Source: Aggregatilinea lenta (GTDB lineage: Bacteria; Chloroflexota; Anaerolineae; Aggregatilineales; Aggregatilineaceae). From it: 64,000 nt of DNA. Where the stretch lies: positions 1,426,001 through 1,490,000 of the forward strand of contig NZ_BFCB01000003.1 of NCBI RefSeq assembly GCF_003569045.1, written 5' to 3'. The notes below the pieces were generated by a model, which was given only the letters and a program-made list of their open reading frames with translations, did no database searches and was not told the origin of the DNA. The translations under genes and the position numbers were made by a program. Shown here piece by piece: positions 1,370 through 21,126 of this stretch. Position 1 is the stretch's first letter; every line of letters starts with the position of its first letter.

Positions 1370-2770
1370 CTAGCGCCCCGCTGCAACTGGCTCGACGACC
1401 GCGATAGGCATAACGGGTCGCGAGACGGGTCTACGCTGCCAGACCGTCGCAAAGATGTTGTAGGAGAACAGCACAAAGCTGATAACCAGCAGTCCTCCAC
1501 CCGACGCACGAAGTGCCATATAGGGTCGCAAACCCGGCAGCACTTCCCAAACCGGCAGCCCCTGGTGTACCCAGGAGGTTCCCTGTACCAGTCCGGTCAA
1601 CAGGAACCCGGCGAAGAAAAAGATGAAGCCAACGACATAGATGCTGTATTGAACATTAGCCAGCGTCCGGCTGTAAATCTCGCAATCGTAGATGCGGGGG
1701 ATGACGTAATACATCCCGCCGATGATCACTGAAGCAGAAAAGAACATCAGGGCCAGGTGCGCATGGCCTGGCACATATTGGGTGAAATGGGTCAGCAGAT
1801 TGATGCCACGCAGTGCCTGGTGCGATCCCTGGTAGGACACCAAAATGTACGCTGCCCAGCCGGTGATCACGAAACGCAGCGGAACACTGGAAAAGAAGCG
1901 ATTCCAGTTGCCGCGCATCGTCAGGTAAATATTCATCATGAACGCCACCACGGGCAGAATCATGCCGATGCTTTCGGCGACAGCAATCGTCTTGAGCCAG
2001 TAGGGAATAGGCGCCCATAGGAGGTGGTGCGCGCCAACCCCGGTGTAAAAGAAGGCGATGCCCCAAAACGCCACCAGCGACAGGAAATGGCTATAAAGCG
2101 GGGTGCGCGTCTCGCGGGGCACCACGTAGTAGATGACGGGCAGCAAGCCGGTCGTGAACCACAAGCCAAGTACATTGTGCCCGTAGAACCAGTTGAAGAT
2201 GGTATCGTTGATGCCCGTCAACGCGCCTGTCGGCGGGTTCCACATGACGTTGCCGATAAAGTAAAGGAGCGGCATCCAGATCAGCGTACCGCTGATATAC
2301 CACAGCGAAACGTACAATTTTTGCTCGACCCGGTGCGTGATAGTCATGTAAAGGTTAAACATGTTCAAAACCAGCACGACCATCACCGCGATATCGATGA
2401 ACCAGATCAGCTCGGCATATTCACGGCTCTGAGTATGTGCGGTCAGAATGCTAACAATCCCGACCAACAGCGCGATATTCCACAGCGCCATGCACACATT
2501 ACCGAGCGTCTCGCTCCAGAGCCTGCGGCCAGTGAGCCGGGGCACAATATAGAGCCACAGCCCCATCATCCCCCCAGAGAGCCAGGCAAACATGACCGTA
2601 TTGGTATGTGCCTGGCGCAGACGCGGGAAGACAAGCCATGAAATTCCCCGAAACAGATCGGGGAAGACGAACTGCAGCGCCAGCACCAATCCCATACTCA
2701 CGCCGATAATGAGCCACAGGGCTGCGCTGAGCATGAAATTGGCACTTGCGCTGTTCTCCCTCGTAAACAT
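1370..2770 (-). CDS. ccoN: cbb3-type cytochrome c oxidase subunit I
   Basis: This 466-residue polytopic protein (about 12 membrane segments) is the catalytic heme-copper subunit, reducing oxygen to water with proton pumping. Candidate metal ligands lie where CcoN needs them: H55 in RQAHTN and H338 in GHAHL for the low-spin heme region, H198 in FYGHN (the C-family Cu_B helix), the H248-H249 pair, and H336. FYGHN followed by a YYVVPRE-like segment is characteristic of CcoN and argues against the related NorB. The length matches the family. It begins the operon and is followed by the multi-heme CcoO-like gene; no separate ccoP or ccoQ is visible. cbb3 enzymes usually serve microaerobic respiration, but the sequence gives no direct evidence of regulation. 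Confidence 0.92.
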   Translation of the reverse strand: MFTRENSASANFMLSAALWLIIGVSMGLVLALQFVFPDLFRGISWLVFPRLRQAHTNTVMFAWLSGGMMGLWLYIVPRLTGRRLWSETLGNVCMALWNIALLVGIVSILTAHTQSREYAELIWFIDIAVMVVLVLNMFNLYMTITHRVEQKLYVSLWYISGTLIWMPLLYFIGNVMWNPPTGALTGINDTIFNWFYGHNVLGLWFTTGLLPVIYYVVPRETRTPLYSHFLSLVAFWGIAFFYTGVGAHHLLWAPIPYWLKTIAVAESIGMILPVVAFMMNIYLTMRGNWNRFFSSVPLRFVITGWAAYILVSYQGSHQALRGINLLTHFTQYVPGHAHLALMFFSASVIIGGMYYVIPRIYDCEIYSRTLANVQYSIYVVGFIFFFAGFLLTGLVQGTSWVHQGLPVWEVLPGLRPYMALRASGGGLLVISFVLFSYNIFATVWQRRPVSRPVMPIAVVEPVAAGR

Positions 2771-3370
2771 TATTCCCTCCCCTAGTATTCAAAAAGATCG
2801 CTTCGCACAGTCTTACTCGCAGATGGAGGCGATCAGGGTGTCGAGCAAGGCGCAGTTTCTGGCGCATCGACCAACCGTTGCCGATCTGGAAAGGGGGAGC
2901 AATGTATGGGGGACGGTTTCGAAACGCACGTAAGAGCCATTCGGTCGCACTCCATTCCGGGGGGTAAAACCCAGGAGTTGGTGCCCCAAAAGGGACCCGT
3001 CAGGGCCTATTCGAAGAGCAGTATTTCGGTGTTTGTACCCTGGCGCTCATCCCGGCTGAGATCTAAGGCGGCTCAGCTCACAGCGACAAAACGCGCTGCA
3101 AAAATGGATGATAACAGGATTGCTTGTGACAATTTACGCTCGCAGAGCACTGGCGTTCATGACAGGCCTGGGAGCAATGGGGTATGGTGAGATTCCGAAA
3201 TGGGGAGGCGGCGTTGGGAAACGGCCTGAAACGAAAGCACTACTGATCTTTCGATATGGAACCGATAATATTTATTATTGTAATTAAATTCACATGCTAA
3301 AGCAACTCATACAGCGAAATTGATCGCATCCACGCCTTGATTAATTGAGGTGCGGTCATAAATCGTTCAG
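2771..3370. other. Gene-free region upstream of ccoN
   Basis: About 600 bases hold no convincing gene. Short open frames here (for example 2906-3190 plus) have no recognisable protein pattern. The part next to 2770 must carry the promoter of the ccoN operon, but I could not pick convincing -35 and -10 boxes. The stretch near 3260-3300 is very AT-rich. Confidence 0.5.
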
Positions 3371-3476
3371 GCCGAAACACCGAATGAAAAGACACCGCGC
3401 CAGGGCATAGCCGAAGCGCTGGGCATCAGTCGCAGAAACATCTATCGCCAGTGGAAGCGGCCAGCCAAAGACCAGG
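3371..3476 (+). pseudogene. Left fragment of a helix-turn-helix gene broken by an insertion sequence
   Basis: This frame encodes a recruiter-type helix-turn-helix (IAEALGISRRNIYRQWKRP) with no start codon and a stop just upstream, so it is already truncated at its 5' end. It stops making sense exactly where the insertion-sequence inverted repeat begins at 3477. A second HTH fragment resumes after the element at 4665. The two may come from one transposase-accessory or regulator gene, but that link is inferred only from position. Confidence 0.5.
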
Positions 3477-4664
3477 CTGTGGGGGCCAAAAAGTCAATCC
3501 ACGGTGAAAACGGGTAGAATACCTCACAGTATCACATTGTAAAGATCAGCAACTCCCCGCAAGGTTATCAATTAGTGATCGTCAACCAAATAGAACGAAA
3601 GATAGGCCAGATCATACGACACGGTATGACTTGGCTTGAGACACGGTTCAAGCAATGGACCCGACCAGCGAGCCATCAGTTGATCATGCTGGAACGACAG
3701 GTCGTTCGTTCGAAGCTGACCCAACGCAATCGACAGGTGCTGATGTTACTGGCGAGTCAGATCAAAGGTTGGAAGGAAGCCTTGATCGTGGTGAAGCCGG
3801 ACACCTTGATCGGCTGGCACCGCTTGGGGTTCAAGTTATTCTGGCGACGAAAATCGCGAGGCAGGCAGGGTAGGCCACCGATCGCGGCGGAGATGATTGC
3901 GCTGATCGAGGAGATGGCGATTAACAACCGCACCTGGCGGGCCAAACGGATTCAGGGTGAGCTGCTCAAGCTGGGGATCAAGGTGAGCAAGGAAACGATC
4001 AGGAAGTATATGCGACGAGCGAGACAAGCGTTGCCGCCGCTCAAATGGAGCCAGACCTGGGCGACGTTCCTGGCGAATCATGCCAGTGAGACCTGGGCGT
4101 GTGATTTTGTGCAGACCTATGACTTCTTCTTCCGAACGGTGTTCGTGTATTTCATCATTGAATTGGACTCGCGCAAGGTTCTGCACTATGGGGTGACATG
4201 TTCACCCAGGGTGGGTTGCCCAGCAGGCCAGGGAAGCCACGCCCTATGCGGAGGGACTCTGCTTTTTGATCCGAGACAATGACAGGAAGTATGGACAGCG
4301 CTTCACCCGAGTAGCCGAGGACCGTCAGATTATGGTGCTCAAAACGCCGGTGGAGGCACCGCAAGCCAAGGCGATCTGCGAGAGGTTCATCGGCAGTGTG
4401 AGACGCGAATGCCTGGAACACATCCTCATTCTGAGTGAGCGACATCTCAATCGTGTCATCGGAGAGTATGTCGCATACTTCAATCACGCGCATCCTCATC
4501 AAGGGATTGGTCAGCGGATTCCGGTTCCACCAGAAAGCACTCTGAGTGCAGATAGATCGACATCACGAACCGTTGGGTATCCGGTCCTTGGGGGTCTGCA
4601 CCACGACTACCGACGAGCTGCTGACCGAAGAATCGGCTACGGATCAACTTTTTAGCCCCCACAG
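3477..4664 (+). mobile_element. Insertion sequence with 24-bp terminal inverted repeats and a frameshifted transposase
   Basis: The left end (3477-3500) starts CTGTGGGGGCCAAAAAGTC. The right end (4641-4664), read in reverse complement, starts CTGTGGGGGCTAAAAAGTT. The two 24-base ends differ at only a few positions and bracket one integrase-core transposase, giving an element of about 1188 bp. No clear target duplication is visible. The same terminal sequence recurs alone near 4985-5007 and 20787-20813, so the family has been active here before. The transposase is of the DDE integrase-core type (IS3/IS481-like); I cannot assign the family exactly. Confidence 0.85.
3575..4655 (+). pseudogene. 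Transposase, DDE integrase core, frameshifted
   Basis: The first part (GTG start at 3575) has an N-terminal HTH region, a basic stretch, and the first catalytic Asp in WACDFVQTYD. Similarity then jumps frame near 4200-4225. In the next frame the protein continues as VAQQAREATPYAEG and RDNDRKYG (second Asp), then the Glu-bearing CERF region and the usual tail with YFNHAHPHQGIGQ. A one-base lesion near 4215 explains the break. It is not a standard slippery site, so I call it a disabled transposase and not programmed frameshifting. The stop at 4655 lies inside the right inverted repeat. Confidence 0.85.
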
Positions 4665-4796
4665 CCCGAAAACACTCGGCGCAATGCCGAAATCAGAGAG
4701 CGTCACTCTCATGGCGAAGCGATTGGAGAACTAGCGAGTGCATTCGGTATTTCTATCCAGCGCGTTTCACAAATCGTGCACGGTTGGCGCCGTTGA
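4665..4796 (+). pseudogene. Right fragment of a helix-turn-helix gene
   Basis: Directly after the insertion sequence an open frame encodes about 43 residues ending in TGA at 4794-4796. The core ELASAFGISIQRVSQIV is a clear helix-turn-helix of the resolvase/sigma-region-4 kind. It has no start codon of its own and is read as the C-terminal part of a gene cut by the element; the matching left fragment is at 3371-3476. Confidence 0.5.
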
Positions 4797-4929
4797 GCAC
4801 AGCATCAAAAGGGATCTCAAACAAGAGACACCTCTGGAACGACTTTATTTGATCGTTACGAACATGCTTTGCGACTACTATCGCGATGCCTCGTGGGTGA
4901 AAATCGGCTATCGAATCAATTGTCTGAGA

Positions 4930-5008
4930 CTACGGGGGCTGCGCCATGACTACCGACGGGTGCTTGAGCGAAGAATCGGCTGCTGATCGACTTTTTGGCC
5001 CCCCAGTC
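4930..5008 (+). mobile_element. Solo 3' remnant of the same insertion-sequence family
   Basis: This stretch encodes GLRHDYRRVLERRIGC and a stop, matching the tail of the transposase at 4590-4655 (GLHHDYRRAADRRIGYG). It then carries the terminal repeat GATCGACTTTTTGGCCCCC. It is a second, truncated copy of the element at 3477-4664. The 130 bases before it (4797-4930) show nothing I recognise. Confidence 0.75.
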
Positions 5009-5118
5009 AACTATGTCCACTTCATAGCAAGCTACAAGAATATATGTTCATATATTTAGATATCTTCATCTCGCCTGTCAAGCCTACCGCACGCACCAAC
5101 CACCGGATGATCCCGTCG

Positions 5119-6315
5119 CTACACCACCAGAAATGCCGTGAAATACATGATCGCTACACCGATCAGGAAACCCAGGCTGTTCACGGTGTTCAGCGCGCTT
5201 TCTTCGTGGCTGCGGCTGTCCCGGATCAGCAGGCGCGCCACTTCATAGACAACCTGGAAAATCGCGCCGATGCCAATGCTCAAAAACACAACCGCCAGCA
5301 GTGGATTGAAGCTGAACCCGCCAATCCACACGCCAATCACCGCTGGCCCGCCTGCCAACAGCGCCAGCGCGACGAAGTGGTAAAGCGGGGGGCGTTTGGT
5401 CGTGATAGGAGCAGCGATGCCGATCCCCTCGGTGATATTGTGCAGGGTGAAGCCGATTACCAGAAAGGTACCCAGGCTCACCTGCCCGATCGCAAACGCC
5501 GCGCCCACCGCCAGCCCTTCGCCCAGGTTGTGAAATCCAATACCGAGCGCAATCGTATAAGCCAGCAGCAGCCGCGAATCGCCGGACCTGAATATGCCGC
5601 TCACCAGCTTGATCGCGATTAGACTGATCGGGACCAGCAAAAACACCAGTGATTTGCCCTGAAACGTGGCCGGTACTTCCGCCGCCAGATCGAGCGCTTC
5701 CTCGAATGTGTCGATGCCCAGGAACACCAGCAGCCCAATCGTGAGCGCCAGCGCGAAGTTCATCCACTCGCGCCGCAACCGCCGCAAAAACGGGTACCAG
5801 AGCAGACCCAGCGCAACCGGCAAGACGCCAACGTACACACCGAGCAGCCCATACGCGCGGAACTGGCGCGCCGACGGCTCGGGTGTTGCGAGCGCTACAT
5901 CCACCGCAAATGGGAACACCACCCCGGTAGCAGTGATCACCACGATCTCGTGCGCCTCTCCTTCCACCCAGGGATACGGGATACGGATCGAGGCGGACTG
6001 AAAACGGTCGAGCACGGCATCGCCTGCCTCAAAGCTGTAGTTCCAGTACGCACCATCGACCTGGATCTGGGCTATCGAAATAGGATCGGGACCGCTGTTG
6101 AACACGTCCAGCCGGAAGCCTTCGTTGTCGAGGGCCACCCGCTGGGACTCCAGTACCTCGACCGGGGGCACGTCGCCGCTGAAAATGGATACCGGATCGG
6201 TGAACAGGAAGAGCGTGAGCACGGCGACGAGAGCGACCAGAGGCAACAGGCCCATCAGCCAGAACTGGATTCCGCGCGTATCGGGACGTTCGACAGTGAC
6301 ATCAGGCGTCGCCAT
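5119..6315 (-). CDS. ZIP-family divalent metal transporter with an N-terminal extracytoplasmic domain
   Basis: A 398-residue membrane protein. The transporter core carries both metal-binding motifs of ZIP proteins: HNLGEGLAVG (H262, E266) and HNITEGIGIA (H292, E296). ZIPs move zinc, iron or similar ions into the cytosol. Before the core lie a membrane helix (about residues 18-38) and a roughly 110-residue predicted beta-rich segment, making it longer than a minimal ZIP. I chose the ATG at 6315 because a strong GAGGAGG ribosome site sits just before it; an upstream in-frame start at 6384 would run deep into the preceding gene. It overlaps the multicopper oxidase stop by 14 bases, so the two are translationally coupled and probably work on the same metal. 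Confidence 0.88.
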   Translation of the reverse strand: MATPDVTVERPDTRGIQFWLMGLLPLVALVAVLTLFLFTDPVSIFSGDVPPVEVLESQRVALDNEGFRLDVFNSGPDPISIAQIQVDGAYWNYSFEAGDAVLDRFQSASIRIPYPWVEGEAHEIVVITATGVVFPFAVDVALATPEPSARQFRAYGLLGVYVGVLPVALGLLWYPFLRRLRREWMNFALALTIGLLVFLGIDTFEEALDLAAEVPATFQGKSLVFLLVPISLIAIKLVSGIFRSGDSRLLLAYTIALGIGFHNLGEGLAVGAAFAIGQVSLGTFLVIGFTLHNITEGIGIAAPITTKRPPLYHFVALALLAGGPAVIGVWIGGFSFNPLLAVVFLSIGIGAIFQVVYEVARLLIRDSRSHEESALNTVNSLGFLIGVAIMYFTAFLVV

Positions 6316-7378
6316 GGTGTTCCTCCTCGGTGACGTGGAACATCCCCATCCAGCCCAGTTCGGCAAATTCGCTCTGGTGAGCATGGAACATGTACATGCC
6401 TGGTTTCTGATAGTTGAACTCCAAAATTCCGCGCTGCCCCTGGCATTGCATGATCGTATCGACCCGGCGCTGCGTGGGTGTCAGAGTCGTGCCGTGGTCG
6501 TAGTAGTCGAAAAACTCGGCATGCAGATGGAACGAGTTGATCAGATCGAACTCCGTCAGATTGATGAGGTAGAGGCGCACCCGCTCACCCACCTTCAGAG
6601 GAATCACGTCGTTGTTGTAGGCAAATGCGACCGTGTTGACGGCGTAGACCTCGTTCTCGTCATCGAAATTGGTGTCGAAGCCGTTCATCACCATGACCAG
6701 CTCCGTAGCCTCGGGGCGACCTTCAGGAGGGTCGACGATAAACGCGCCATACAGACCCTTGTGAATGTGGCGCTTGAGCGGGATCGCATGGCAGTGATAC
6801 AGATGGCACCCAAAGGGCTCCGCGACGAACTCATAGGTGAAGGAGTCGCCCGGCTGGATCATGCCTGGCCCAACCATATCGAAGGGCATCCCCGGCATGG
6901 CGGGTATCCCATCCATTACGGCAGCGTGGATGCCGTGAAAATGTATTGTATGCGGATGCGATCCTGCGTTCACGAAGTGAATCCGCAGCAGGTCACCTTC
7001 CGTGCAGCGGATTGTTGGCCCAGGAATACGACCGTTATAGGTCCACGCCGGGAAGAAGAGCCCGGGTGCTATCTCGACCTCTTTATCGACGGCTATCAGG
7101 TTGTACTCGCGGACCGTGCGCCCGTCTTCCTGGTACACCTGATCACCGTAGTTGAAATCAACGAGCAACTCGCTCGGGTGAAAACCGTTGCGCTCGTGGT
7201 CTACCTCTCCCATCGCGCCAAAGACGCCGCCACTATGCGAGCCGCCGTGTCCGTTCGGAGACTGGCGGGGTGGCGCCGCATCGATGCGCGGCAGCACGCG
7301 TGATCCACCAAGTGCAGCCAGCGCGGTGGATATCGCACCTACGATGAACTGCCGTCGTTTTACGTTTGCAGTGGACAT
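6302..7378 (-). CDS. Two-domain multicopper oxidase, probably exported
   Basis: A 358-residue protein with a twin-arginine-like N-terminus (RRQFIVGAIS, then a hydrophobic stretch). Four HxH motifs expected for a trinuclear copper cluster are present: HFH at 146-148, HCH at 195-197, HLH at 284-286 and HAH at 332-334. C196 is placed for a type 1 copper in domain 1. Domain 2 has no equivalent cysteine between its histidines. Two-domain multicopper oxidases act as trimers and oxidise phenols, metals or other one-electron donors with oxygen. The overlap with the ZIP gene suggests a role in metal (copper, iron or manganese) oxidation and uptake; that is inference. The 281-base gap to 7660 upstream is AT-rich and should hold its promoter. 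Confidence 0.88.
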   Translation of the reverse strand: MSTANVKRRQFIVGAISTALAALGGSRVLPRIDAAPPRQSPNGHGGSHSGGVFGAMGEVDHERNGFHPSELLVDFNYGDQVYQEDGRTVREYNLIAVDKEVEIAPGLFFPAWTYNGRIPGPTIRCTEGDLLRIHFVNAGSHPHTIHFHGIHAAVMDGIPAMPGMPFDMVGPGMIQPGDSFTYEFVAEPFGCHLYHCHAIPLKRHIHKGLYGAFIVDPPEGRPEATELVMVMNGFDTNFDDENEVYAVNTVAFAYNNDVIPLKVGERVRLYLINLTEFDLINSFHLHAEFFDYYDHGTTLTPTQRRVDTIMQCQGQRGILEFNYQKPGMYMFHAHQSEFAELGWMGMFHVTEEEHHGDA

Positions 7379-7659: not shown

Positions 7660-8682
7660 TTACCTGCTCGTCAATGACAACCTCGTTCTCCACGTTGGCG
7701 ATGATTTAGTGTCACGATACACTGGTCCCATGCAGGTATTCGCCTGAGTCAGGTCAACTAAGTTTTCATCTTCCTCTGCTAAGTCATGAAAGTCGAGTTT
7801 GGCCAATTGCCCGAGCAAGCCCTGTTTGCGACAGATTTCTAGCAGACTCTGTTCCCGCACGTTGCCACAACGGAACTCGCGACTGGTTAACACATGACAT
7901 GGGAACACATCCCCATTTGGCATGATATTGAGAAATTGTCCGACCCCACAGTTGGCACATGACTCTGATTCCGGCGGATCAGGCGGTAGTGATTGATCAG
8001 GATAGCACCGAAGCCACGCTCGTTGCACGGCTTCTCTTGCTTTATGCGCATTTGCTCGCCATTCCGCGTACTTCTTGCCACGCCCAACAGGTCGAAAAGC
8101 ATTGAGGTTGATTCGTGTGAGTTTTTTCTGAATTAGAAACACGAGTAATTCCTCTAAATCTGGCAAACCGTGCGCGGTTACAGTCACCAGTACTTTTGGC
8201 TCAAACCCAACTGCATAGTAGGTTTCCAGCGCTCGCACCGCCGCATCGAAATTGCCCTTTCCTCGCAGCGCATCATTACGTTCTCGCAGGGCATCGAGGC
8301 TTACCCGCACTTCATCGGCCAATCCAACCAGTTGTTTTGCCAATTCAGGCGTCACCAGGTGTCCGTTGGTATTCAGACAGCGCAACACATGGTGTTGAGG
8401 ATCGGCCTCTTTCAGACCCTGAAGCAAGTCCAGGATATCAGGGCGGAGAAGAGGCTCCCCGCCAGTAAATATCACCTTTTGTGGTCTGATAGCAACTATG
8501 TGCGACCAAAGGCGCATGAACTCCTCTGTACGCATTTCATCAGGCAAGGGACGACTTGCGGAAAAATAACAGTATTTGCAGTAGAGGTTGCAGGCTTTAG
8601 TGACATGAAGAAAAACATTCCGTAGTGGGACTGTCTCTGTGGAACTATCAGGCTCCAGCCAAGGGAAAGCGGGTGTGTCCAT
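7660..8682 (-). CDS. Radical SAM/SPASM-type protein of the HEAT-repeat operon
   Basis: A 340-residue enzyme with the radical SAM cluster motif CNLYCKYC (C31, C35, C38) and the SAM-binding GGEP at 74-77. A C-terminal cysteine-rich region of SPASM type follows (C242, C245, C262, C272, C284, C317) with the usual NIMPNGDVFPCH segment. SPASM proteins bind extra iron-sulfur clusters and generally modify peptides or proteins. It is the last gene of a six-gene operon. Its ATG overlaps the stop of the preceding HEAT gene by one base (TAATG), so it is translationally coupled to a possible substrate. The last 15 residues look unlike a family tail, and a neighbouring frame ends VENEVVIDEQVMSE, so a late frameshift is possible. 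The reaction is unknown. Confidence 0.87.
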   Translation of the reverse strand: MDTPAFPWLEPDSSTETVPLRNVFLHVTKACNLYCKYCYFSASRPLPDEMRTEEFMRLWSHIVAIRPQKVIFTGGEPLLRPDILDLLQGLKEADPQHHVLRCLNTNGHLVTPELAKQLVGLADEVRVSLDALRERNDALRGKGNFDAAVRALETYYAVGFEPKVLVTVTAHGLPDLEELLVFLIQKKLTRINLNAFRPVGRGKKYAEWRANAHKAREAVQRAWLRCYPDQSLPPDPPESESCANCGVGQFLNIMPNGDVFPCHVLTSREFRCGNVREQSLLEICRKQGLLGQLAKLDFHDLAEEDENLVDLTQANTCMGPVYRDTKSSPTWRTRLSLTSR

Positions 8683-10091
8683 TAGGCATGTTCTCCCCGA
8701 CGGATGAGTTCCTGGCGGGCGAGCTGTCTTATGTAATCAACCCTTATGTGTTCTGGGCCTAGTTGGCCTAAGTCGCACGTACCTTTATATTCCCAGTGAT
8801 ATTTCACATCATCAAGCGATACAACTGCCCGAAGATCTTCATTGGTTGCCCTGCCAGCATTGCGCTCCAATATTCCTTGCAGTGCATGGACAATCGACTT
8901 GGCGTGCGCTTCATTAGAAAAACTAGTCAATCTAGTGTCGTGACACATTTTGACTATCGGAGCGATAGCCTGCACTTCCCCTATCCATCCAAGGGCCACC
9001 AAGGACTTGATGGATTGACTGCTTTCGCCATGTAAGTACTTGGTCAGAAATGCAAAGGATCGACCATCTGATAGCCGCCCAAGCGCTTCGCCGAAAATGT
9101 CGTAATCGAAAGGACTATCCTCTTGTAGAAGCGTCATCATAGGTTCGATGGCATGCTTATCTCCGAGCTTGCCAAAGACCTCAATAATTTTGTTGTTGAT
9201 TTCATAATCATTTTTTTCACTGAGTAGGTCAATCAATGGCTCAACTGCCGAGGCGCCAAAGCTGATTATTTGATCCAATTCGTTGCATGCAATGCAAACC
9301 ATGATCTCATCTTTCTTATCCTTTGGCTTAAATCGCAGACTGCGTAACGCTTGACCTGCGGCTTCACGCACATCCACAGACCGATGGTTCTTTGCTGCAG
9401 CCAGTAGAGGTTCAATGGCACGATCGTCGCCAAGTTGGCCGAGTATCTTGGCTACTGCTGTCGAATCTCTATTGTCCGTATTGAGTGTAGCTATCAATGG
9501 TTCTACGGCAACATCCCCAATCTGAACGAGTGCTTGAGCTACAAATTCACCGGGAAGTGCTTCAATTAAAGGTACGGCAGCAGCGTCCCCGAGGTGAATT
9601 AGCGCTTGAGTTGCAACCTCGCGCACTTCGGCATCGTCAAGCTCCTTAATCAAGCGTTTGACGCCAGCATCCCCAAGTTGAGCTAGCGCCAGAGATGCAC
9701 CCTCACGAACTGCTTCGTAACGACTCTTCAGACCTTGTGTACACAATGATTCAATTGCCGCATCTCCGAACTGAGCAATCGCATGTATTGCAGCCTGACG
9801 TACAGCCACATTTTCATTGCGCAATAGATGGATCAATTGCTGTACAGTAAACTTATCTCTAATCGGCGACAATGCTTCTATTACGGCTATCAGAACAATA
9901 TCTGGTGCGAATATATACGCCAATTGATGAACTAATGCCCCGCTTGCTTGCACATCCTCGATCTCTCCCAATGCTTGTGCCGCATGCTTCCGTACTACAG
10001 GTTTATTTTTATGTTCCATAGCTTTAATTAAGCCCTTGACGTCGCCCTTCGCTTTCATCTTCTCGATATTAGGTGGTCCAAAGAGTGGCAT
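8682..10091 (-). CDS. HEAT-repeat protein, paralogue 1 (closest to the radical SAM gene)
   Basis: A 469-residue protein made almost entirely of helical HEAT/PBS-lyase-like repeats of about 31 residues, with motifs such as VEPLIATLN and DVREAAGQALRSL. It starts MPLFGPPNIEKMKAKGD and ends with the operon-wide tail RQLARQELIRRGEHA. In this copy the residues before the tail read VDYI where the three others have DCS plus two residues, although one cysteine (GTC) is kept about 15 residues earlier. HEAT solenoids bind proteins or nucleic acids; no catalytic motif is present. The ATG at 10091 follows a leader (AACAGGAGCGAATATC) shared with the other paralogues. Confidence 0.87.
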   Translation of the reverse strand: MPLFGPPNIEKMKAKGDVKGLIKAMEHKNKPVVRKHAAQALGEIEDVQASGALVHQLAYIFAPDIVLIAVIEALSPIRDKFTVQQLIHLLRNENVAVRQAAIHAIAQFGDAAIESLCTQGLKSRYEAVREGASLALAQLGDAGVKRLIKELDDAEVREVATQALIHLGDAAAVPLIEALPGEFVAQALVQIGDVAVEPLIATLNTDNRDSTAVAKILGQLGDDRAIEPLLAAAKNHRSVDVREAAGQALRSLRFKPKDKKDEIMVCIACNELDQIISFGASAVEPLIDLLSEKNDYEINNKIIEVFGKLGDKHAIEPMMTLLQEDSPFDYDIFGEALGRLSDGRSFAFLTKYLHGESSQSIKSLVALGWIGEVQAIAPIVKMCHDTRLTSFSNEAHAKSIVHALQGILERNAGRATNEDLRAVVSLDDVKYHWEYKGTCDLGQLGPEHIRVDYIRQLARQELIRRGEHA

Positions 10092-10105
10092 GATATTCGC
10101 TCCTG

Positions 10106-11554
10106 TTATGCCTCTTCTCGACGACGAATGAGTTCCTGGCGGGCGAGCTGGCGAAGATGAGAGCAGTCAATTTTCTCGAACCTCACTTCGCTACAAGTGT
10201 CGGGAATGACAATTTGATAAGATGGGTTGCTCATGTTGAGTATAAGTCGCAAGTCATCCCCACTGATAGCGCTCGATTCGCGTTCAAATATCATTTCCAA
10301 ACCCTTTACAACGAGTATGGCTGTGTTTCCGATACCGGAAAAGAATGCTGAATCGTCTTCGATACCGGAAAAATCAACAAGAGCTTTCACCGCTGCTGGC
10401 CCCAGATCTACGACTTGCTGCAACTGACCGCGAGCGATAGCAAGAAATGCACGTTTTCTATCATCAGTGGGCCATCCAATTCCCTCGAGCGCATCGGCGG
10501 CGGTAGCACGGACTCTGACATCACCTTTGATCATCTCAAGTAATGTTGCGACAGCTCGAGGATCTCCGATATCTCCGAATGCGTGTACAATGGCCATACG
10601 CTCGTCAAGATTAGGCATTCTTGGGTCTAGCTGTTTGAATATCGCGCTTAAGGGTTCTATCGCACGCGGATCTCCGAGTTTTCCTAGTGCGGCTATGCCG
10701 TATTGATACCCCTCGATGGCGTCCTTGAGAAGAGGCTCGACAGCACGCACATCACCGAATTCTGCAAGTGCATCAGCTATGGTTCGTTTCACCCAATATT
10801 CGCGGCGTTGACTCAGAGCCTCAATCAACGGATCCACAGCCCGTAGGTCTCCAATATGACTCAATGCTCTCACTATGTCTTCGAGAACGTGAGTATCACC
10901 TTGCTTTTGAAGGGCCTCAATCAAAGGTTCTACAGCAAGTGGGTCTCCTATTTGACCGAGAATTAAGGTGGCGTTCTTTTGCACATCTCTGTCCGAATTT
11001 TTGAGAGCGGCGATTAGGGGCGGCAGGGCTTCTTTCCCGAATTCCGCGGCGAGTTTCCAATCCATGCGAGCGACGGCAAGAGTGGCCCGTTTTGTATCAT
11101 CTGTAGCCCACCCTAGTTTCTCTAACGCATCAGCGATTCTCTCGCGATCACCTCGTCCTAGATCATAGTTGTTTAATAACTCAACCAAGGGTTCCACGGC
11201 ACGCGCTTCACCTAGTTGGGCCAGTGCTTCAGCCAATTGAGAATATGAGTTGAATTCTTCTCGAGACTCCTGAATTGCGTTATTCAGTTTGTCGAGTAAT
11301 GGCTCCGCGGCGCGTGGTTCGCGCAATTTCCCAAGAGCTATTATTGCGTGATACCATTCACTGCCGCTTTTGAGCATTTCGATCAGTGGCTCAACAGCAC
11401 GGACATCACCAATTTCTGCTAATGCGTCAATGGCCTTTCGACGTACTTGTTGGTCAGGATAGCCTGATCCCTGATGTTTGAGCGCTTTGATTAATCCTTT
11501 TACGTCGCGCTTCGTTTTCATCTTCTCGATATTGGGTGGTCCAAAGAGTGGCAT
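10106..11554 (-). CDS. HEAT-repeat protein, paralogue 2
   Basis: A 482-residue HEAT-repeat protein. The start at 11554 is chosen because it gives the shared MPLFGPPNIEKMKTKRD opening and sits behind the shared AACAGGAG leader; the frame stays open upstream, but that overlaps the previous gene. Repeats such as AVEPLIEMLKSG and AVEPLIEALQKQG cover most of the length. A recurring GWATDDTKRA/GWPTDDRKRA spacer divides the solenoid into blocks and also occurs in modified form in paralogues 3 and 4. The end holds TCSEVRFEKIDCS followed by RQLARQELIRRREEA, so two cysteines precede the conserved tail. Fourteen bases separate it from paralogue 1. Confidence 0.86.
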   Translation of the reverse strand: MPLFGPPNIEKMKTKRDVKGLIKALKHQGSGYPDQQVRRKAIDALAEIGDVRAVEPLIEMLKSGSEWYHAIIALGKLREPRAAEPLLDKLNNAIQESREEFNSYSQLAEALAQLGEARAVEPLVELLNNYDLGRGDRERIADALEKLGWATDDTKRATLAVARMDWKLAAEFGKEALPPLIAALKNSDRDVQKNATLILGQIGDPLAVEPLIEALQKQGDTHVLEDIVRALSHIGDLRAVDPLIEALSQRREYWVKRTIADALAEFGDVRAVEPLLKDAIEGYQYGIAALGKLGDPRAIEPLSAIFKQLDPRMPNLDERMAIVHAFGDIGDPRAVATLLEMIKGDVRVRATAADALEGIGWPTDDRKRAFLAIARGQLQQVVDLGPAAVKALVDFSGIEDDSAFFSGIGNTAILVVKGLEMIFERESSAISGDDLRLILNMSNPSYQIVIPDTCSEVRFEKIDCSHLRQLARQELIRRREEA

Positions 11555-11568
11555 GATATCTTCTCCTG

Positions 11569-13173
11569 TTAGGCTTGTTCCCCGCGCCGGATGAGTTCCT
11601 GACGGGCGAGTTGTTTGATCTGGGAGCAATCAAATGTCGTTGTAACGTCTGGTCCTTGACAGGAAGGCCTCCAAAGATAAATCTCTAGCTGGGATTCCAT
11701 GGAAGCCATACGATGCAAAGTGCCTAAATTGAACAGGGTTATATGCGTTTCAAGGAGTTTGGTGATTCTCGTGATCTCGTTCTGAAGGCTGACGCCATGT
11801 GCTTCATATTCCCTGATTTTCCCATCCTGGTGAGTGGCTTCATATCGCGCACCATGTAACCGCCCCATGATATCTTCGACTATGATTTCTACGGCAGTTG
11901 TTGCCCCTGGCATCGTCCCTGATTCAGGGTCCGCTTGTGGCGACCATCCTGATTTCAAGAGCGTTTCAGCAGCTTTAAGGCGCATTTCCGAAAATAACTT
12001 TTCATTACCTGCAATCCGTACTAATGGAGCAAACGTGCGCCTATCTGAAAGCTGACCTAGTATTTCAATTACTTTCTCAACCTGACCCTCAAAGAGTTTG
12101 CCAGAAACATTATCAAACAATTCGCCGAGGGCGCTGGCAGAGGACTCTGCCAAACCTGCTACCTTTTCCCAATCTTTGTTTATGACAGCAACCAGAGCCT
12201 TTTCGCGCTCGGTTTTTGGCACCCAACCAACTCTCTCAAGTGACTCAGCTGCTTCTGCTTTCATTCCCCAAGATCCGTTATTTAGTACAGTAACCACTGA
12301 ATCGACAGATTTTAATTCAGCCAGTGCTCTAACAGCGCCCTTCCGCACAGTGTATTCCTTATCCTCAAGTGCTTGAATCAAAGGTTCCACTGCTTGTCCG
12401 TCGCCAAGTTGGCCTAGAGCTTCAATGGTTGTTTCTCGTACTCTCCAATCTTCATCCCTCAGGGTCTGGATCAGAGGATCTACTGCTCGTGAATCACCTA
12501 GCTGTCCTAATGCACTGGCTGCTTGCTGTCGTACATTACTGTCGTTATCCTCCAATGTCTGAATCAGCGGATCTACTGCCCGTGCATCGCCCAGTTGCAT
12601 GAGCGCTCCTGCTGCTGCAAGCCGTACATCGCCGTTTTTATCCTGTAGCGCCTGAATCAATGGCTCAACTGCTCGTGCATCGCCCAACTGCCGCAGGGCT
12701 TTTGCTGCCTGGCGTCGTGCAGGTTCGTTTTCATCCTGCAGCGCACGGATCAGCGGTTCCACTGCCAGTTCGCTATCGATCTCTTTTGTTATTTTTATTG
12801 CACTGTCACGACCTTTGGTAATTTGACGAACCAGAGGCGCAATCGCCCGGCTATCTTTGAGCTGTGCCAGGGCATCTGCCGCAACCTGGTAGACGCGGTC
12901 GTTATCATCGAGGGCGTCAATCAAGGGCATTACGGCATCTGGATTACTCAGCTTTCCTAGCGCTTGAGCCGCTGATTCTCGAATATCGGATGCCCTCTTC
13001 ATATTTCTTTGTATTCGCTCAACGTCTTTGGTAGCGCCCCTGGCATATGAACTTCCCGAAAGTTTTCTGCGTTCGTTTTCTTTGTCACGTTCGTATTCCA
13101 GCGCTCGAATCAACCCTTTTATATCTTTTTTGGCTTCTAATTTCTTGACATCTGGTGGCCCGAAAAGTGGCAT
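11569..13173 (-). CDS. HEAT-repeat protein, paralogue 3
   Basis: A 534-residue HEAT-repeat protein beginning MPLFGPPDVKKLEAKKD at the ATG at 13173. An N-terminal charged segment (about residues 28-60) precedes six or more regular repeats of the type AVEPLIQALQDKN and QAASALGQLGDSRA. The C-terminal third is less regular and ends in a segment with a predicted coiled stretch. It has a PSC...FDCS cysteine pair and the shared tail QLARQELIRRGEQA. No enzymatic motif is visible. It shares the leader sequence and the 14-base spacing with its neighbours, which indicates in-operon gene duplication. Confidence 0.86.
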   Translation of the reverse strand: MPLFGPPDVKKLEAKKDIKGLIRALEYERDKENERRKLSGSSYARGATKDVERIQRNMKRASDIRESAAQALGKLSNPDAVMPLIDALDDNDRVYQVAADALAQLKDSRAIAPLVRQITKGRDSAIKITKEIDSELAVEPLIRALQDENEPARRQAAKALRQLGDARAVEPLIQALQDKNGDVRLAAAGALMQLGDARAVDPLIQTLEDNDSNVRQQAASALGQLGDSRAVDPLIQTLRDEDWRVRETTIEALGQLGDGQAVEPLIQALEDKEYTVRKGAVRALAELKSVDSVVTVLNNGSWGMKAEAAESLERVGWVPKTEREKALVAVINKDWEKVAGLAESSASALGELFDNVSGKLFEGQVEKVIEILGQLSDRRTFAPLVRIAGNEKLFSEMRLKAAETLLKSGWSPQADPESGTMPGATTAVEIIVEDIMGRLHGARYEATHQDGKIREYEAHGVSLQNEITRITKLLETHITLFNLGTLHRMASMESQLEIYLWRPSCQGPDVTTTFDCSQIKQLARQELIRRGEQA

Positions 13174-13187
13174 GATATTCACTCCTG

Positions 13188-15173
13188 TCAGGCTTTTTCA
13201 CCACGCCGAATGAGTTCCTGGCGGGCGAGTTGACGGACATGTGAACAGTCAACAGCGACCTCCCCATAGCACAAAAAGGTTCCCATACTACAGGAAACTG
13301 TTCCTTTTATGATTGACTCCGTAGCTTGAAGCTTAGCGATCTTTTGCAACTCTGGTATTTCAACATCACCAGCATAACGAGTGAGTATTTTCAATAGCGC
13401 TTCAACTGAGGTGTTTGAACGGTGATTGTCTCGTACGCCAAACTCCAGGATAGGGCCGATGGCGCGGGCATCACCGATTTCCCCAAGTAGCTGGATTGAC
13501 CTAAGACGCACCTTGTTTTTTGTGAGGTTAGGCACAAGCAAATCGATAGCGGATTCGCTCAATGATTTAGAGATTTGATCATATTTCTCATGACTTGTGG
13601 GGGCGCACAAGAGCCAAGATAACCTTTCAGAATCAGTAGACGGTCGCCATCCCAACTTTTCAAGCGCTTCTGCCACGCTTTCTTCCACGAGTATGTCATC
13701 GTTGACCAAGTTAATCAGGGGTTCAATTGCACGTACATCCCCAAGTTCTCCAAGTGCCATAGTTGCACCTTCGAGCAGATTATGATCGTCACCCCTGAGG
13801 GTCATAATCAACAGGGCACCTGTTTGCGAATATCCAATTTTCTTCAGCGATTCTATCACCTTCCTGCGCAACTCCTCACTCGTATCCTTGAGCGCAGCTA
13901 TAAGAGGCATCACCGAGGATCCTCCCAAACTAACTACCTTGTCCCACTCTCCAGCGGAAACCGCAAGGTTAGCTTGCCTAAGGTCGTTATTGGTCCAGCC
14001 GAGTTTATTGAGTAATTCGGTGATAGCTTGCGTCTCCTCTTTGAAACCTAGAAAAAACGCAGTTCGGTCACCATCGTTCACATCTCTTATGAGAGCTCGG
14101 TAATATGCCTGTCTGCCATCGCTCATTTCCTCCAACGCCTCAAGTGCTTCCCAGCGAACAAAGTCATCGGGATCATTGAGCATAGAAAAAAGCGGCTCCA
14201 CCGTACGCAAATGAGGACGTTGTCCCAGAACCTTCACTACGATCCTACGCACAGAGGGATCTTGGTCCTTGAGTGCGGCAATGAGTGGTTCCATCGCCCA
14301 GACACCAACTTCCATGAGAATGCTCTCCGCCGACTTACGCACGCTGTTGTTGTCATCTTTGAGTGCGGCAACAAGGGGTTCTATTGTCTGGGAATTCTTA
14401 ACCTGTTTTAGAGCCCAGCTAGCATCGTGACACACCAAGTCATCTTGATCCTTGAGCGCGGCAAGAAGGGGTTCTACAGCGCGTGAATCCCCAATTTTTC
14501 CTAGTGCTTGCGCCGCAATCCCGCGCACAGAGGGATCTTGATCCTTGAGTGCAACAATGAGTGGCTCTACAGCACGTGAATCCCCAATTTTTCCTAGTGC
14601 TTGCGCCGCAATCCTGCGCACAGAGGGATCTTGATCCTTGAGTGCAACAATGAGTGGCTCTACAGCACGTGAATCCCCAATTTTTCCTAGCGCTTGCGCT
14701 GCAATCCCGCGCACAGAGGCATCTTGGTCCTTGAGTGCGACAATGAGTGGCTCTACAGCACGCACACCAATTTTAATAAGAGTACTATCCGCTCGTTTGC
14801 GCGCATTTCCGTTGTCATCTTTGATAACCATAAGCAACAGTTCTATCGTCCGCGGATCCCCAATCTCTTCCAAAGCTTGTGCAGCAGCATAAGAATTTTC
14901 GTTGAGCATGGCTATAAGCGGCTCCACCGCTCGAGTATCCCTAATTTGTCCCAATGCCGCCGCCGCTTCATTGCATACCACAATTGATTCATCCTTGAGG
15001 CCGACGATCAGGGATTCGACAGCCTGTACATCACCCAATTGTCCCAACGCCGTTGCGGCCGCGCAGCGAATTTTCTCATTCTTGTGTTGGAGTGCTTTGA
15101 TCAACCCCTCCACATCGCGCTTTGCCCGTAATTTCTCGACGTTTGGCTCAAACCATGGGTCCCAGAGTGGCAT
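13188..15173 (-). CDS. HEAT-repeat protein, paralogue 4 (longest, first in the series)
   Basis: A 661-residue protein, the longest of the set, with about 15 HEAT repeats. The opening MPLWDPWFEPNVEKLRAKRD is a diverged form of the shared N-terminus. Residues near 150-245 contain three almost identical repeats (AVEPLIVALKDQD, IAAQALGKIGDSR). A GWTNNDLRQA block and a GWRPSTDSER block mark internal divisions as in paralogues 2 and 3. The tail carries several cysteines (SCS, LCYG, VDCS) before RQLARQELIRRGEKA. It begins 4 bases after the NTPase stop, so the two are coupled. Its solenoid has clearly grown by recent tandem duplication. Confidence 0.87.
   Translation of the reverse strand: MPLWDPWFEPNVEKLRAKRDVEGLIKALQHKNEKIRCAAATALGQLGDVQAVESLIVGLKDESIVVCNEAAAALGQIRDTRAVEPLIAMLNENSYAAAQALEEIGDPRTIELLLMVIKDDNGNARKRADSTLIKIGVRAVEPLIVALKDQDASVRGIAAQALGKIGDSRAVEPLIVALKDQDPSVRRIAAQALGKIGDSRAVEPLIVALKDQDPSVRGIAAQALGKIGDSRAVEPLLAALKDQDDLVCHDASWALKQVKNSQTIEPLVAALKDDNNSVRKSAESILMEVGVWAMEPLIAALKDQDPSVRRIVVKVLGQRPHLRTVEPLFSMLNDPDDFVRWEALEALEEMSDGRQAYYRALIRDVNDGDRTAFFLGFKEETQAITELLNKLGWTNNDLRQANLAVSAGEWDKVVSLGGSSVMPLIAALKDTSEELRRKVIESLKKIGYSQTGALLIMTLRGDDHNLLEGATMALGELGDVRAIEPLINLVNDDILVEESVAEALEKLGWRPSTDSERLSWLLCAPTSHEKYDQISKSLSESAIDLLVPNLTKNKVRLRSIQLLGEIGDARAIGPILEFGVRDNHRSNTSVEALLKILTRYAGDVEIPELQKIAKLQATESIIKGTVSCSMGTFLCYGEVAVDCSHVRQLARQELIRRGEKA
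14445..14723 (-). repeat. Three tandem 93-bp repeats inside HEAT paralogue 4
   Basis: Units at 14445-14537, 14538-14630 and 14631-14723 are exactly 93 bases each (one 31-residue HEAT unit). The second and third differ at only four positions; the first differs at somewhat more, and a partial fourth unit follows from 14724. The DNA-level identity shows recent expansion, in contrast to the diverged repeats elsewhere in the gene. Confidence 0.93.
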
Positions 15174-15177
15174 CGTA

Positions 15178-15768
15178 TTATCTCCTTTTATTCTTTAACC
15201 AGTTCGTTAGTGTATGGTGCGCTATTTGTGATTTGGCATCCCAATCTCGTTTATTATTATCGACAAATGCATAATTCGGATGCTCTTGCCATGCATAGGT
15301 GCACAGCAAATCTGTTTGAGCGGCTTGTTCAATTGTTTCGGGGCGGTGGGCGTGAGGCCAGCGTATGTAGAACGCATCTGCGCCTATTGCGGCGGTTTGC
15401 AGATGCACAACGCCGTAGTAACGATGGAAATGTTCCTCACGAGTCATGTCGATAAAATCAAAGAACGTGTTTTCATTCCAGCCATTTCGCAACCAGTAAG
15501 CCAGTGGATCAAGTGTTCCTCTGTGGCAAAGAAGTACCTGATCAGACGTTGCCGATTCGGCACAAATCTCTTCGAGTGCGATCTGTAATCGAACGACTGC
15601 ACGTTGAAATGCTGGCTCGTGTCCATTTAAGCCTGCCTGAAACAGAAGCGGTGCAGCTTCAGGGACAAGTATCCAGCGTTTTGCTGACGGATCGTCAGCG
15701 CGCAATTCGCGCATCAGTGTCGTCTTGCCACCGCCGGGACCACCGGTTAAAACGATACGGATCGCCAT
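15178..15768 (-). CDS. Small P-loop NTPase (AAA_28-like) heading the HEAT operon
   Basis: A 196-residue protein with a textbook Walker A motif, GGPGGGKTT (residues 9-17), at the N-terminus. EAAPLLFQAG, AFQRAVVRLQ and CHRGTLDPLAYW segments follow, typical of the AAA_28/ATPase-kinase-like family whose members often sit in phage or accessory loci. An Asp in the VLLCHRGTLD region may serve as Walker B. It is the first gene after the promoter and ends 4 bases before HEAT paralogue 4. It could phosphorylate a small molecule or protein, or act as a switch; the sequence does not say which. Confidence 0.82.
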   Translation of the reverse strand: MAIRIVLTGGPGGGKTTLMRELRADDPSAKRWILVPEAAPLLFQAGLNGHEPAFQRAVVRLQIALEEICAESATSDQVLLCHRGTLDPLAYWLRNGWNENTFFDFIDMTREEHFHRYYGVVHLQTAAIGADAFYIRWPHAHRPETIEQAAQTDLLCTYAWQEHPNYAFVDNNKRDWDAKSQIAHHTLTNWLKNKRR

Positions 15769-15802: not shown

Positions 15803-15839
15803 CATGTGAATAATAGTCCCTCAGGAATGCGGTTGTCAA
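15803..15839 (-). promoter_or_regulatory. Near-consensus sigma-70 promoter of the NTPase/HEAT/radical-SAM operon
   Basis: On the minus strand, TTGACA (15839-15834) is followed after 18 bases by TATTAT (15815-15810). Transcription should start near 15803, about 35 bases before the NTPase ATG at 15768. The -35 box lies only about 24 bases from the left end of the IS3 element. Confidence 0.7.
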
Positions 15840-15929
15840 TTTGGGTAAAACCGGCTGCGGTGTTGACCTGCCCCCCACAAACGGATCCAGTTTGTATGTT
15901 AGGATTGGACAACTAAGGAGGTGGGGGAA

Positions 15930-16205
15930 ATGCCACGTAAGCGTTACGCATCCGACGAGATCATCCACAAGTTACGCGAGGCTGAGGTGTTGCTCAGCCA
16001 GGGCCAGACGGTGCAAGAAGCGGTGCATCAACTCGGGATTGCAGAGCAGACGAACTACCGCTGGCGCAAAGAATACGGCGGTCTGGACAAGAGTCAGGCA
16101 GCACGGCTGAAAGCGCTGGAACGCGAGAATCTCAGGCTAAAGCAGCTGGTGGCGGAGCTATCGCTGGATAAGTCGATTCTGGAAGAAGCGCTGTCAAAAA
16201 AGTAG
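15930..16205 (+). CDS. IS3-family transposase OrfA
   Basis: A 91-residue protein starting MPRKRYASDEIIHKLREAE at the ATG at 15930, behind a strong AAGGAGGTGGGG ribosome site. It carries an N-terminal helix-turn-helix (QTVQEAVHQLGIAEQTNYRW) that binds the element ends. A leucine-zipper-like C-terminus (LERENLRLKQLVAEL) follows for dimerisation, as in the IS407-like branch of IS3. The frame could also open at a GTG at 15921. It ends TAG at 16203-16205, directly after the slippery heptamer. Confidence 0.88.
   Translation: MPRKRYASDEIIHKLREAEVLLSQGQTVQEAVHQLGIAEQTNYRWRKEYGGLDKSQAARLKALERENLRLKQLVAELSLDKSILEEALSKK
16196..16202 (+). promoter_or_regulatory. Programmed -1 frameshift site AAAAAAG
   Basis: The heptamer A-AAA-AAG lies right before the orfA stop. 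A slip by one base back joins orfA to the orfB frame without a stop, giving the OrfAB fusion that acts as IS3 transposase. Confidence 0.75.
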
Positions 16206-16234
16206 TCAGCCCGGCCAGGCGGCGCGAGGTCGTA

Positions 16235-17065
16235 GTGCACGTTCAACAGCAGTTGGGCGTGTCGGAGCGGCGTGCCTGCCGGGTGTTGAGACAACCACGC
16301 GCCACGCAGCGCTACGTTAGCCAACGTGGCGCGGAGGAAGTGCAGCTAACGATACGGATTGTGGACCTCGCCCGTGCCTACGGTCGCTACGGCTACCGGC
16401 GCATCACCGTGCTGCTGCGGACCGAAGGGTGGCACATGAACCACAAGCGCGTGGAACGGATCTGGCAGCAAGAAGGCTTGAAAGTGCCGCTCAAACAACC
16501 CAAGCGGGGTCGGCTGTGGCTGAATGACGGGTCCTGCGTCCGGTTGCGGCCTGCCTATCTCAACCATGTCTGGAGCTACGACTTCATGCAGGACCGTACC
16601 CACAACGGCGTGCCATTGCGCATCCTGAATATCATCGACGAATATACGCGTGAATGCCTCGCCGTGCGCGTAGAACGACACTTATCTCGCCGGGAGGTGC
16701 TGGAGGAACTGACCTGGCTGTTCTGCGCGCGTGGGCTGCCTGCCTACATCCGCTCTGACAGCGGCCCGGAGTTCACCGCTGAGCGCGTCCGCGACTGGCT
16801 GTCACGCCTCAACGTGGGGCCGCTGTTCATCGAGAAGGGCAGTCCCTGGGAGAATGGCTACCTCGAGAGCTTCAATGGCAAGATGCGCGATGAACTGCTC
16901 AATGGCGAGATCTTCTGTTCGCTGACAGAAGCCCAGGTGCTGATTGAAGACTGGAGGTGCCACTACAACACCCGACGACCCCACAGCTCGCTCGCCTATC
17001 GTCCACCGGCTCCCGAGGCTATACCGGTCTCACCACCCGCCACACCCGTCCGGAGTCTCACTTAG
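16235..17065 (+). CDS. IS3-family transposase OrfB (DDE integrase)
   Basis: Independent translation could begin with GTG at 16235 (276 residues), but the frame is open from the slippery site at 16196, so the functional product is probably the OrfAB fusion. It has a HTH_21-like region (YGRYGYRRITVLLR), the first catalytic Asp in WSYDFMQD, the second in IRSDSGPEF, and the Glu in GSPWENGYLESFNGKMRDE. The C-terminal NTRRPHSSL is typical. All DDE residues are present and there is no internal stop, so the element looks competent. Confidence 0.9.
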   Translation: MHVQQQLGVSERRACRVLRQPRATQRYVSQRGAEEVQLTIRIVDLARAYGRYGYRRITVLLRTEGWHMNHKRVERIWQQEGLKVPLKQPKRGRLWLNDGSCVRLRPAYLNHVWSYDFMQDRTHNGVPLRILNIIDEYTRECLAVRVERHLSRREVLEELTWLFCARGLPAYIRSDSGPEFTAERVRDWLSRLNVGPLFIEKGSPWENGYLESFNGKMRDELLNGEIFCSLTEAQVLIEDWRCHYNTRRPHSSLAYRPPAPEAIPVSPPATPVRSLT

Positions 17066-17095
17066 CGAGTGGTATAGACTCTGGGGGCAAGTCAA

Positions 17096-21105: not shown

Positions 21106-21126
21106 CCCCACGGCTAAAGCCGGGGG
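21106..21126. repeat. Right-end hairpin of the IS200/IS605 element
   Basis: CCCCACGGCT-AA-AGCCGGGGG folds into a stem with one mismatch. The tnpB stop codon (21116-21114) lies in its loop, typical for IS605-type right ends. Confidence 0.75.

What the first reader, a model, noticed from the sequence alone, without database searches (positions are those of the whole stretch)
7660..15768. Six-gene operon pairing a radical SAM/SPASM enzyme and a P-loop NTPase with four HEAT-repeat paralogues
Seen: NTPase, HEAT4, HEAT3, HEAT2, HEAT1 and radical SAM genes are all on the minus strand with gaps of 4-14 bases or a 1-base overlap, behind a single near-consensus promoter. Known: SPASM enzymes usually modify peptides or proteins, HEAT solenoids are binding scaffolds, and AAA_28-like NTPases often occur in accessory loci. 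Inferred: the HEAT proteins may be substrates or targeting subunits of the radical SAM enzyme, with the NTPase as switch or kinase, possibly in a conflict, signalling or protein-modification system. I know of no described system with this composition.
Basis: partly seen in the sequence, partly recalled or inferred. Interest (0 to 1): 0.88.

Follow-up and report, generated by a model that had tools for sequence, protein, structure and literature searches.

The report
Radical enzyme operon with HEAT proteins
A Chloroflexota genome carries a rare acquired operon of one radical SAM enzyme, four tandemly duplicated HEAT-repeat proteins and a small ATP/GTP-binding protein; the same pairing of radical SAM enzymes with this HEAT family turns up independently in distant relatives, which suggests that the enzymes chemically modify the tails of the HEAT proteins, something not described before.

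Summary
The six-gene minus-strand operon is real: NTPase, HEAT4-1, radical SAM; gaps 4/14/14/14 nt, then a 1-nt overlap. GC3 is 0.42-0.49 against 0.56-0.76 in neighbours, and an IS element abuts it: acquired DNA. It is rare: rSAM and NTPase absent from 150 relatives, HEAT tail from 399 other Chloroflexota. The HEAT copies are tandem duplicates whose last ~15 residues are under strong purifying selection; 8 of their 16 cysteines lie in the last 35 residues.

The composition is not accidental. In distant Chloroflexota, HEAT proteins of the same N-terminal family lie beside a radical SAM/SPASM gene (G316, G406) and beside an NTPase 48% identical to this one (G316). These enzymes belong to TIGR04083, an orphan 'peptide-modifying' family. 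TIGR04083 was found in 2 of 251 Chloroflexota genomes; both, and G406, carry HEAT proteins with His-x-Asp-rich C-terminal tails.

Best explanation: the radical SAM enzyme modifies the HEAT C-terminal tails, the solenoid acting as oversized recognition part; the NTPase has an accessory role. Unproven: the window enzyme is not TIGR04083, has an incomplete SPASM, and its tail differs. No defence signature was found. No paper found describes the pairing.

The parts
7660..8682 (-). Radical SAM protein, 340 aa, CNLYCKYC cluster motif, incomplete SPASM (keeps CANCGxGQ...PC, lacks the CxxCxxxxxCxxxC of the second auxiliary cluster)
   Evidence: Pfam Radical_SAM and SPASM; alignment with complete SPASM proteins
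8682..10091 (-). HEAT1, 469 aa, tail TC...VDYIRQLARQELIRRGEHA
   Evidence: Pfam HEAT_2/HEAT_PBS; paralogue alignment
10106..11554 (-). HEAT2, 482 aa; only two Cys (454, 464), both in the tail; AF2 model solenoid plus C-terminal hairpin and helix
11569..13173 (-). HEAT3, 534 aa; only two Cys (505, 516), both in the tail
13188..15173 (-). HEAT4, 661 aa, tail SC...C...VDCSHVRQLARQELIRRGEKA
15178..15768 (-). AAA_28 P-loop NTPase, 196 aa, GGPGGGKTT, CHRG.LDPLAYW instead of the CDRG..DG of stand-alone relatives
   Evidence: Pfam AAA_28 72.3 bits; alignment; relatives
10092..10105 (-). 14-nt spacer with ribosome-binding site CAGGAGCGAATATC, one of three near-identical HEAT-HEAT spacers
11555..11568 (-). 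14-nt spacer CAGGAGAAGATATC
13174..13187 (-). 14-nt spacer CAGGAGTGAATATC
15810..15839 (-). Promoter-like TTGACA-18-TATTAT, about 41 nt before the NTPase start
   Evidence: consensus match only
15864..17094 (+). IS3-family-like insertion sequence (TGACCTGCCCCC...GGGGGCAAGTCA ends, two transposase ORFs 15921-16205 and 16235-17065), 24 bp upstream of the promoter
   Evidence: read from the sequence

Best explanation
The operon is a horizontally acquired protein-modification module. The four HEAT proteins are tandem duplicates with diverged solenoids, each probably binding a different or a cooperating partner, and with one conserved C-terminal cap. The radical SAM enzyme most likely binds the HEAT proteins and modifies that cap: a thioether or other bond at the conserved cysteines, or a change near them, in the manner of SPASM enzymes that mature RiPP precursors, with the solenoid playing the part of an oversized leader. 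The AAA_28 protein would be an ATP/GTP-dependent switch or small kinase that controls or uses the modified HEAT proteins. Shown: gene set, co-direction, duplication, tail constraint, recurrence of rSAM plus HEAT, and of NTPase plus HEAT, in other genomes. Inferred: that the HEAT tail is the substrate, the chemistry, and any role of the NTPase.
For: Operon and spacers. The tail is selected as protein sequence: pN 0.06-0.13 against 0.44-0.52 in the solenoid, while synonymous sites vary (pS 0.35-0.75); 8 of 16 Cys lie in the last 35 residues (hypergeometric P 2e-6), and HEAT2 and HEAT3 have no other Cys. Same N-terminal HEAT family beside rSAM/SPASM in G316 and G406, and beside a 48%-identical NTPase in G316. 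TIGR04083 occurs in 2 of 251 Chloroflexota genomes, both with HEAT proteins whose tails carry 2-4 HxD motifs at the same position after the last HEAT helix; G406 is a third such genome. Best solved-structure sequence match of the window rSAM is 5wgg, which from my own knowledge is the thioether-forming CteB.
Against: The window rSAM is not a TIGR04083 member and its descent from the second rSAM domain of G316/G366 is unresolved (AU p 0.22). The window tail shares no motif with the HxD tails; AF2 predicts it as a folded hairpin plus helix rather than a loose core peptide. HEAT1 lacks the second conserved Cys. The tail could instead be a docking or dimerisation element. The SPASM is incomplete. 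No second genome with this exact gene set is known.
Confidence: 0.42

Rival explanations
1. The rSAM acts on a small molecule or on another protein or peptide, and the HEAT proteins are scaffolds that bring enzyme, NTPase and target together; the conserved tail is the shared docking peptide for the enzyme or the NTPase.
For: The tail is predicted as a folded hairpin and helix, as expected of a docking element; HEAT solenoids resemble designed alphaRep binders; the Cys residues are not fully conserved (HEAT1 lacks one).
Against: Enrichment of Cys in the tail and, in the other genomes, HxD repeats, mostly with a Cys, in tails linked to an annotated peptide-modifying rSAM family fit a substrate better.
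Confidence: 0.28
2. Chance assembly in an accessory island: HEAT genes duplicated in tandem, and an unrelated rSAM and NTPase ended up co-directional.
For: The close set is unique to this genome; an IS element lies directly upstream; AAA_28 relatives elsewhere stand alone.
Against: 4-14 nt junctions and a coupled TAATG at HEAT1-rSAM, uniform low GC3, and independent recurrence of rSAM-HEAT and HEAT-NTPase adjacency.
Confidence: 0.15
3. A viperin-like or other anti-phage system: rSAM makes a modified nucleotide, the kinase-like NTPase phosphorylates it, and the HEAT proteins sense infection.
For: PADLOC pVip matches to the rSAM core (64 bits); some viperins come with kinases (PADLOC model names); the nearest relative of the rSAM, a broken fragment in a Solibacteraceae contig, lies beside a Cap4-nuclease/nSTAND gene.
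Against: The pVip match covers only the common rSAM core (23-151); viperin scores below CteB, SkfB and MoaA in solved structures; a SPASM part is present; the NTPase has no PADLOC match and no defence genes were recognised among the window proteins scanned.
Confidence: 0.1

Closest known systems
TIGR04083 family peptide-modifying radical SAM enzymes (NCBIfam hypothetical equivalog)
   Same: Radical SAM with SPASM; found beside or in the same genome as MPLFGPPN-type HEAT proteins in G316, G366 and G406
   Different: The window rSAM does not match TIGR04083; it resembles instead the second rSAM domain fused to TIGR04083 in G316 (33%) and G366 (27%), without proven descent
SPASM RiPP maturases (CteB, SkfB, StsB, MftC)
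   Same: rSAM core and first auxiliary-cluster cysteines; peptide or protein modification expected
   Different: No short precursor peptide or RRE/PqqD protein seen in the operon; incomplete SPASM; far below family cut-offs
His-Xaa-Ser (Hxs) system with paired HxsB/HxsC rSAM enzymes
   Same: In G316/G366 two rSAM domains plus a protein with repeated H-x-D motifs, reminiscent of repeated H-x-S
   Different: Motif is H-x-D at the end of a HEAT protein; scores far below the HxsB cut-off; none of this in the window tails
Phycobilin lyases CpcE/CpcF and other HEAT_PBS proteins; alphaRep scaffolds
   Same: HEAT solenoid type
   Different: 161 bits against a cut-off of 330 for CpcE; HEAT similarity only

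Membership tests
Radical SAM superfamily | CxxxCxxC motif and Radical_SAM model over gathering score | tested here: met
   88.5 bits against 29.5; C31, C35, C38
SPASM subfamily | SPASM model over cut-off and the full seven-Cys set for two auxiliary clusters | tested here: inconclusive
   32.1 bits against 21.5 but model positions 4-46 of 67 only; the CxxCxxxxxCxxxC part is missing
TIGR04083 | Score over 300 bits | tested here: not met
   No match of the window genome at E 1e-40 and not among the best 25 NCBIfam hits; met by G316 (470), G366 (441) and G406 (404)
Mycofactocin maturase MftC | Score over 265 bits and mftA/mftB neighbours | tested here: not met
   118 bits; no such neighbours seen in the operon
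Prokaryotic viperin (pVip) | Full-length match to viperin models | tested here: not met
   Match limited to residues 23-151, the common core
AAA_28 P-loop NTPases | Pfam AAA_28 over gathering score, Walker A | tested here: met
   72.3 bits against 27, GGPGGGKTT
AAA_28 P-loop NTPases | ATP or GTP hydrolysis or kinase activity | not testable with these tools
   AF2 model of the NTPase too poor to use (pLDDT 39)
MPLFGPPN-type HEAT family | Conserved N-terminal cap MPLFGPPN.EKLKAKRDV.GLIKAL followed by HEAT repeats | tested here: met
   Found in 12 other Chloroflexota genomes at E 1e-3, several with long HEAT ORFs
Phycobilin lyase CpcE/CpcF | Score over equivalog cut-offs | tested here: not met
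   Best 161.1 against 330

The most novel reading that the evidence does not exclude
A new class of radical-SAM protein maturation in which the substrate is the C-terminal cap of a HEAT-repeat solenoid, so that the solenoid is an outsized leader, in at least two flavours: TIGR04083 enzymes with HxD tails, and this Cys-cap flavour with four paralogous substrates and a dedicated NTPase. This would also give TIGR04083 a proposed target.
Probability: 0.35. Interest if true: 0.82.

Novelty: new variant of a known kind. Interest (0 to 1): 0.6.

Why it matters
Radical SAM/SPASM enzymes are a main route to unusual protein and peptide chemistry, and many families, TIGR04083 among them as far as the library searched shows, have no known target. 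A genome-level link between them and one HEAT family makes concrete, testable substrates available, and would extend maturation of this kind from short precursor peptides to the ends of large binding proteins.

Tried and rejected
Search for the RQLARQELIRR tail elsewhere: nothing in 400 Chloroflexota genomes, viral contigs or plasmids (one chance-level hit). Close rSAM relatives: one broken C-terminal piece in Solibacteraceae (L025) and a generic rSAM in a planctomycete; none at E 1e-35 in 347 genomes of the Solibacteraceae phylum, a search without a positive control. NTPase relatives in G278, G225, G154 and Photobacterium: no HEAT or rSAM beside them. Tree to tie the window rSAM to the G316/G366 second domain: unresolved. 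Structure of the NTPase from one sequence: unusable. Viperin, mycofactocin, Hxs and phycobilin lyase readings rejected on family cut-offs. Papers: only the eLife 2020 conflict-systems paper PMC7159879 holds all of radical SAM, SPASM and HEAT repeat, and it does not describe this pairing in the passages found; no paper names TIGR04083, none holds HEAT repeat, RiPP and radical SAM together.

Full report
Observation. The six genes are there as described: NTPase 15178-15768, HEAT4 13188-15173, HEAT3 11569-13173, HEAT2 10106-11554, HEAT1 8682-10091, rSAM 7660-8682, all minus strand, with gaps of 4, 14, 14 and 14 nt and a 1-nt overlap. The three spacers between HEAT genes are near-identical, with the same ribosome-binding site, so the HEAT genes most likely arose by tandem duplication of a gene with its leader. 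A promoter-like site lies upstream of the NTPase, although the scan as a whole finds no more such sites than chance. Family matches: Radical_SAM and SPASM, HEAT_2/HEAT_PBS, AAA_28.

Origin. Third-position GC is 0.42-0.49 in all six genes and 0.56-0.76 in the neighbours. An IS3-family-like element (15864-17094) ends 24 bp upstream of the promoter (read from the sequence). The rSAM and the NTPase have no close relative in 150 related genomes.

The HEAT proteins. All four share the N-terminal cap MPLFGPPN.EKLKAKRDV.GLIKAL and the C-terminal block RQLARQELIRR, while the solenoids differ (30-40% identity to HEAT1). In the last 15 codons non-synonymous differences are 0.06-0.13 per site against 0.44-0.52 in the solenoid, with synonymous differences at 0.35-0.75, so the tail is held by selection and not only by recent exchange. 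Of 16 cysteines in the four proteins, 8 are in the last 35 residues (P 2e-6); HEAT2 and HEAT3 have only these. The AF2 model of HEAT2 shows a solenoid, then a hairpin (445-449, 457-461, Cys454 in the loop), then a helix 465-477 with Cys464 just before it; block confidence there is 58-92. Its best solved neighbours are alphaRep and other HEAT scaffolds.

Recurrence. The N-terminal cap was searched in 301 Chloroflexota genomes and found in 12 besides this one. Neighbourhoods of the best were fetched. In G316 (another class) a gene of two fused rSAM/SPASM halves (6718-9123 of L064) is followed by a HEAT gene, an NTPase 48% identical to the window NTPase, a second HEAT gene, and a second, broken NTPase. 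In G406 an rSAM gene lies directly before a HEAT gene. In G366 a fused double rSAM gene exists elsewhere in the genome. The first rSAM half in G316 and G366 and the G406 enzyme are TIGR04083 members over cut-off: 470, 441 and 404 bits against 300. TIGR04083 was found in only 2 of 251 Chloroflexota genomes searched, G316 and G366. The HEAT proteins of G316, G366 and G406 all end in tails with 2-4 H-x-D motifs; three of the four also hold a cysteine there and end in a G[IV].. FP-type block, at the same place after the last HEAT helix. Among the other HEAT proteins fetched, none ended so. If the two TIGR04083 genomes were a random pair, both falling among the three HxD-tail genomes of 301 would have a chance of about 7e-5 (my arithmetic; the two samples overlap but are not identical). 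Caveat: HxD tails were found through the N-terminal cap, so others may exist.

The NTPase. Relatives in G278, G225 and Photobacterium stand alone and carry CDRG..DG; the two HEAT-linked ones carry CHRG.LDP. A HEAT-linked subgroup is plausible from two sequences, no more. No NTPase of this kind was found in G366 or G406, so it is not an obligatory part.

The window rSAM. It is not TIGR04083. Its best sequence matches are generic SPASM enzymes (StsB-like 152 bits, MftC 118, all far below cut-off). From the side of the G316 and G366 second halves it is the best match outside their own pair (101 and 90 bits, next best 76 and 79), but from its own side other SPASM enzymes score higher, and the tree does not resolve its place (AU p 0.22). 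It lacks the second auxiliary-cluster cysteines. Its nearest relative by identity is a broken C-terminal piece (56%) in a Solibacteraceae contig next to a Cap4-nuclease/nSTAND gene.

Reading. The set is a recurring association rather than an accident, and its common denominator is an rSAM/SPASM enzyme with a HEAT protein bearing a special C-terminal end. The likeliest mechanism is modification of that end. The alternative that the end is only a docking device remains open. Nothing here was tested experimentally. The literature searched holds no such pairing.

Noticed in passing
L064:6718-9123, L077:7994-10408: Genes fusing a TIGR04083 rSAM/SPASM to a second rSAM/SPASM, 46% identical between two Chloroflexota classes; a two-enzyme fusion that may install two modifications.
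   Followed up: partly
L064:12857-13537: The second NTPase copy of the G316 locus looks broken: its pieces lie in different frames.
   Followed up: no
window 15864-17094: IS3-family-like element with clear ends but no obvious target-site duplication, so a rearrangement may have happened here.
   Followed up: no
window 3575-4655: Remains of another transposase, split over two ORFs, on the other side of the operon beyond a multicopper oxidase and a ZIP-like transporter gene.
   Followed up: no
window 21114-22289: TnpB-type protein (OrfB_IS605 with Cas12f1-like TNB domain).
   Followed up: no
L025:1944-2254 and 2425-6412: Broken rSAM fragment 56% identical to the window enzyme beside a Cap4-nuclease/nSTAND gene and an unknown 669-aa gene in Solibacteraceae SbA4.
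   Followed up: partly
L061, L062, L063: In one Chloroflexota genus the same HEAT family ends in a CPSC-type zinc-ribbon-like tail; the C-terminal end of this HEAT family seems exchangeable.
   Followed up: no
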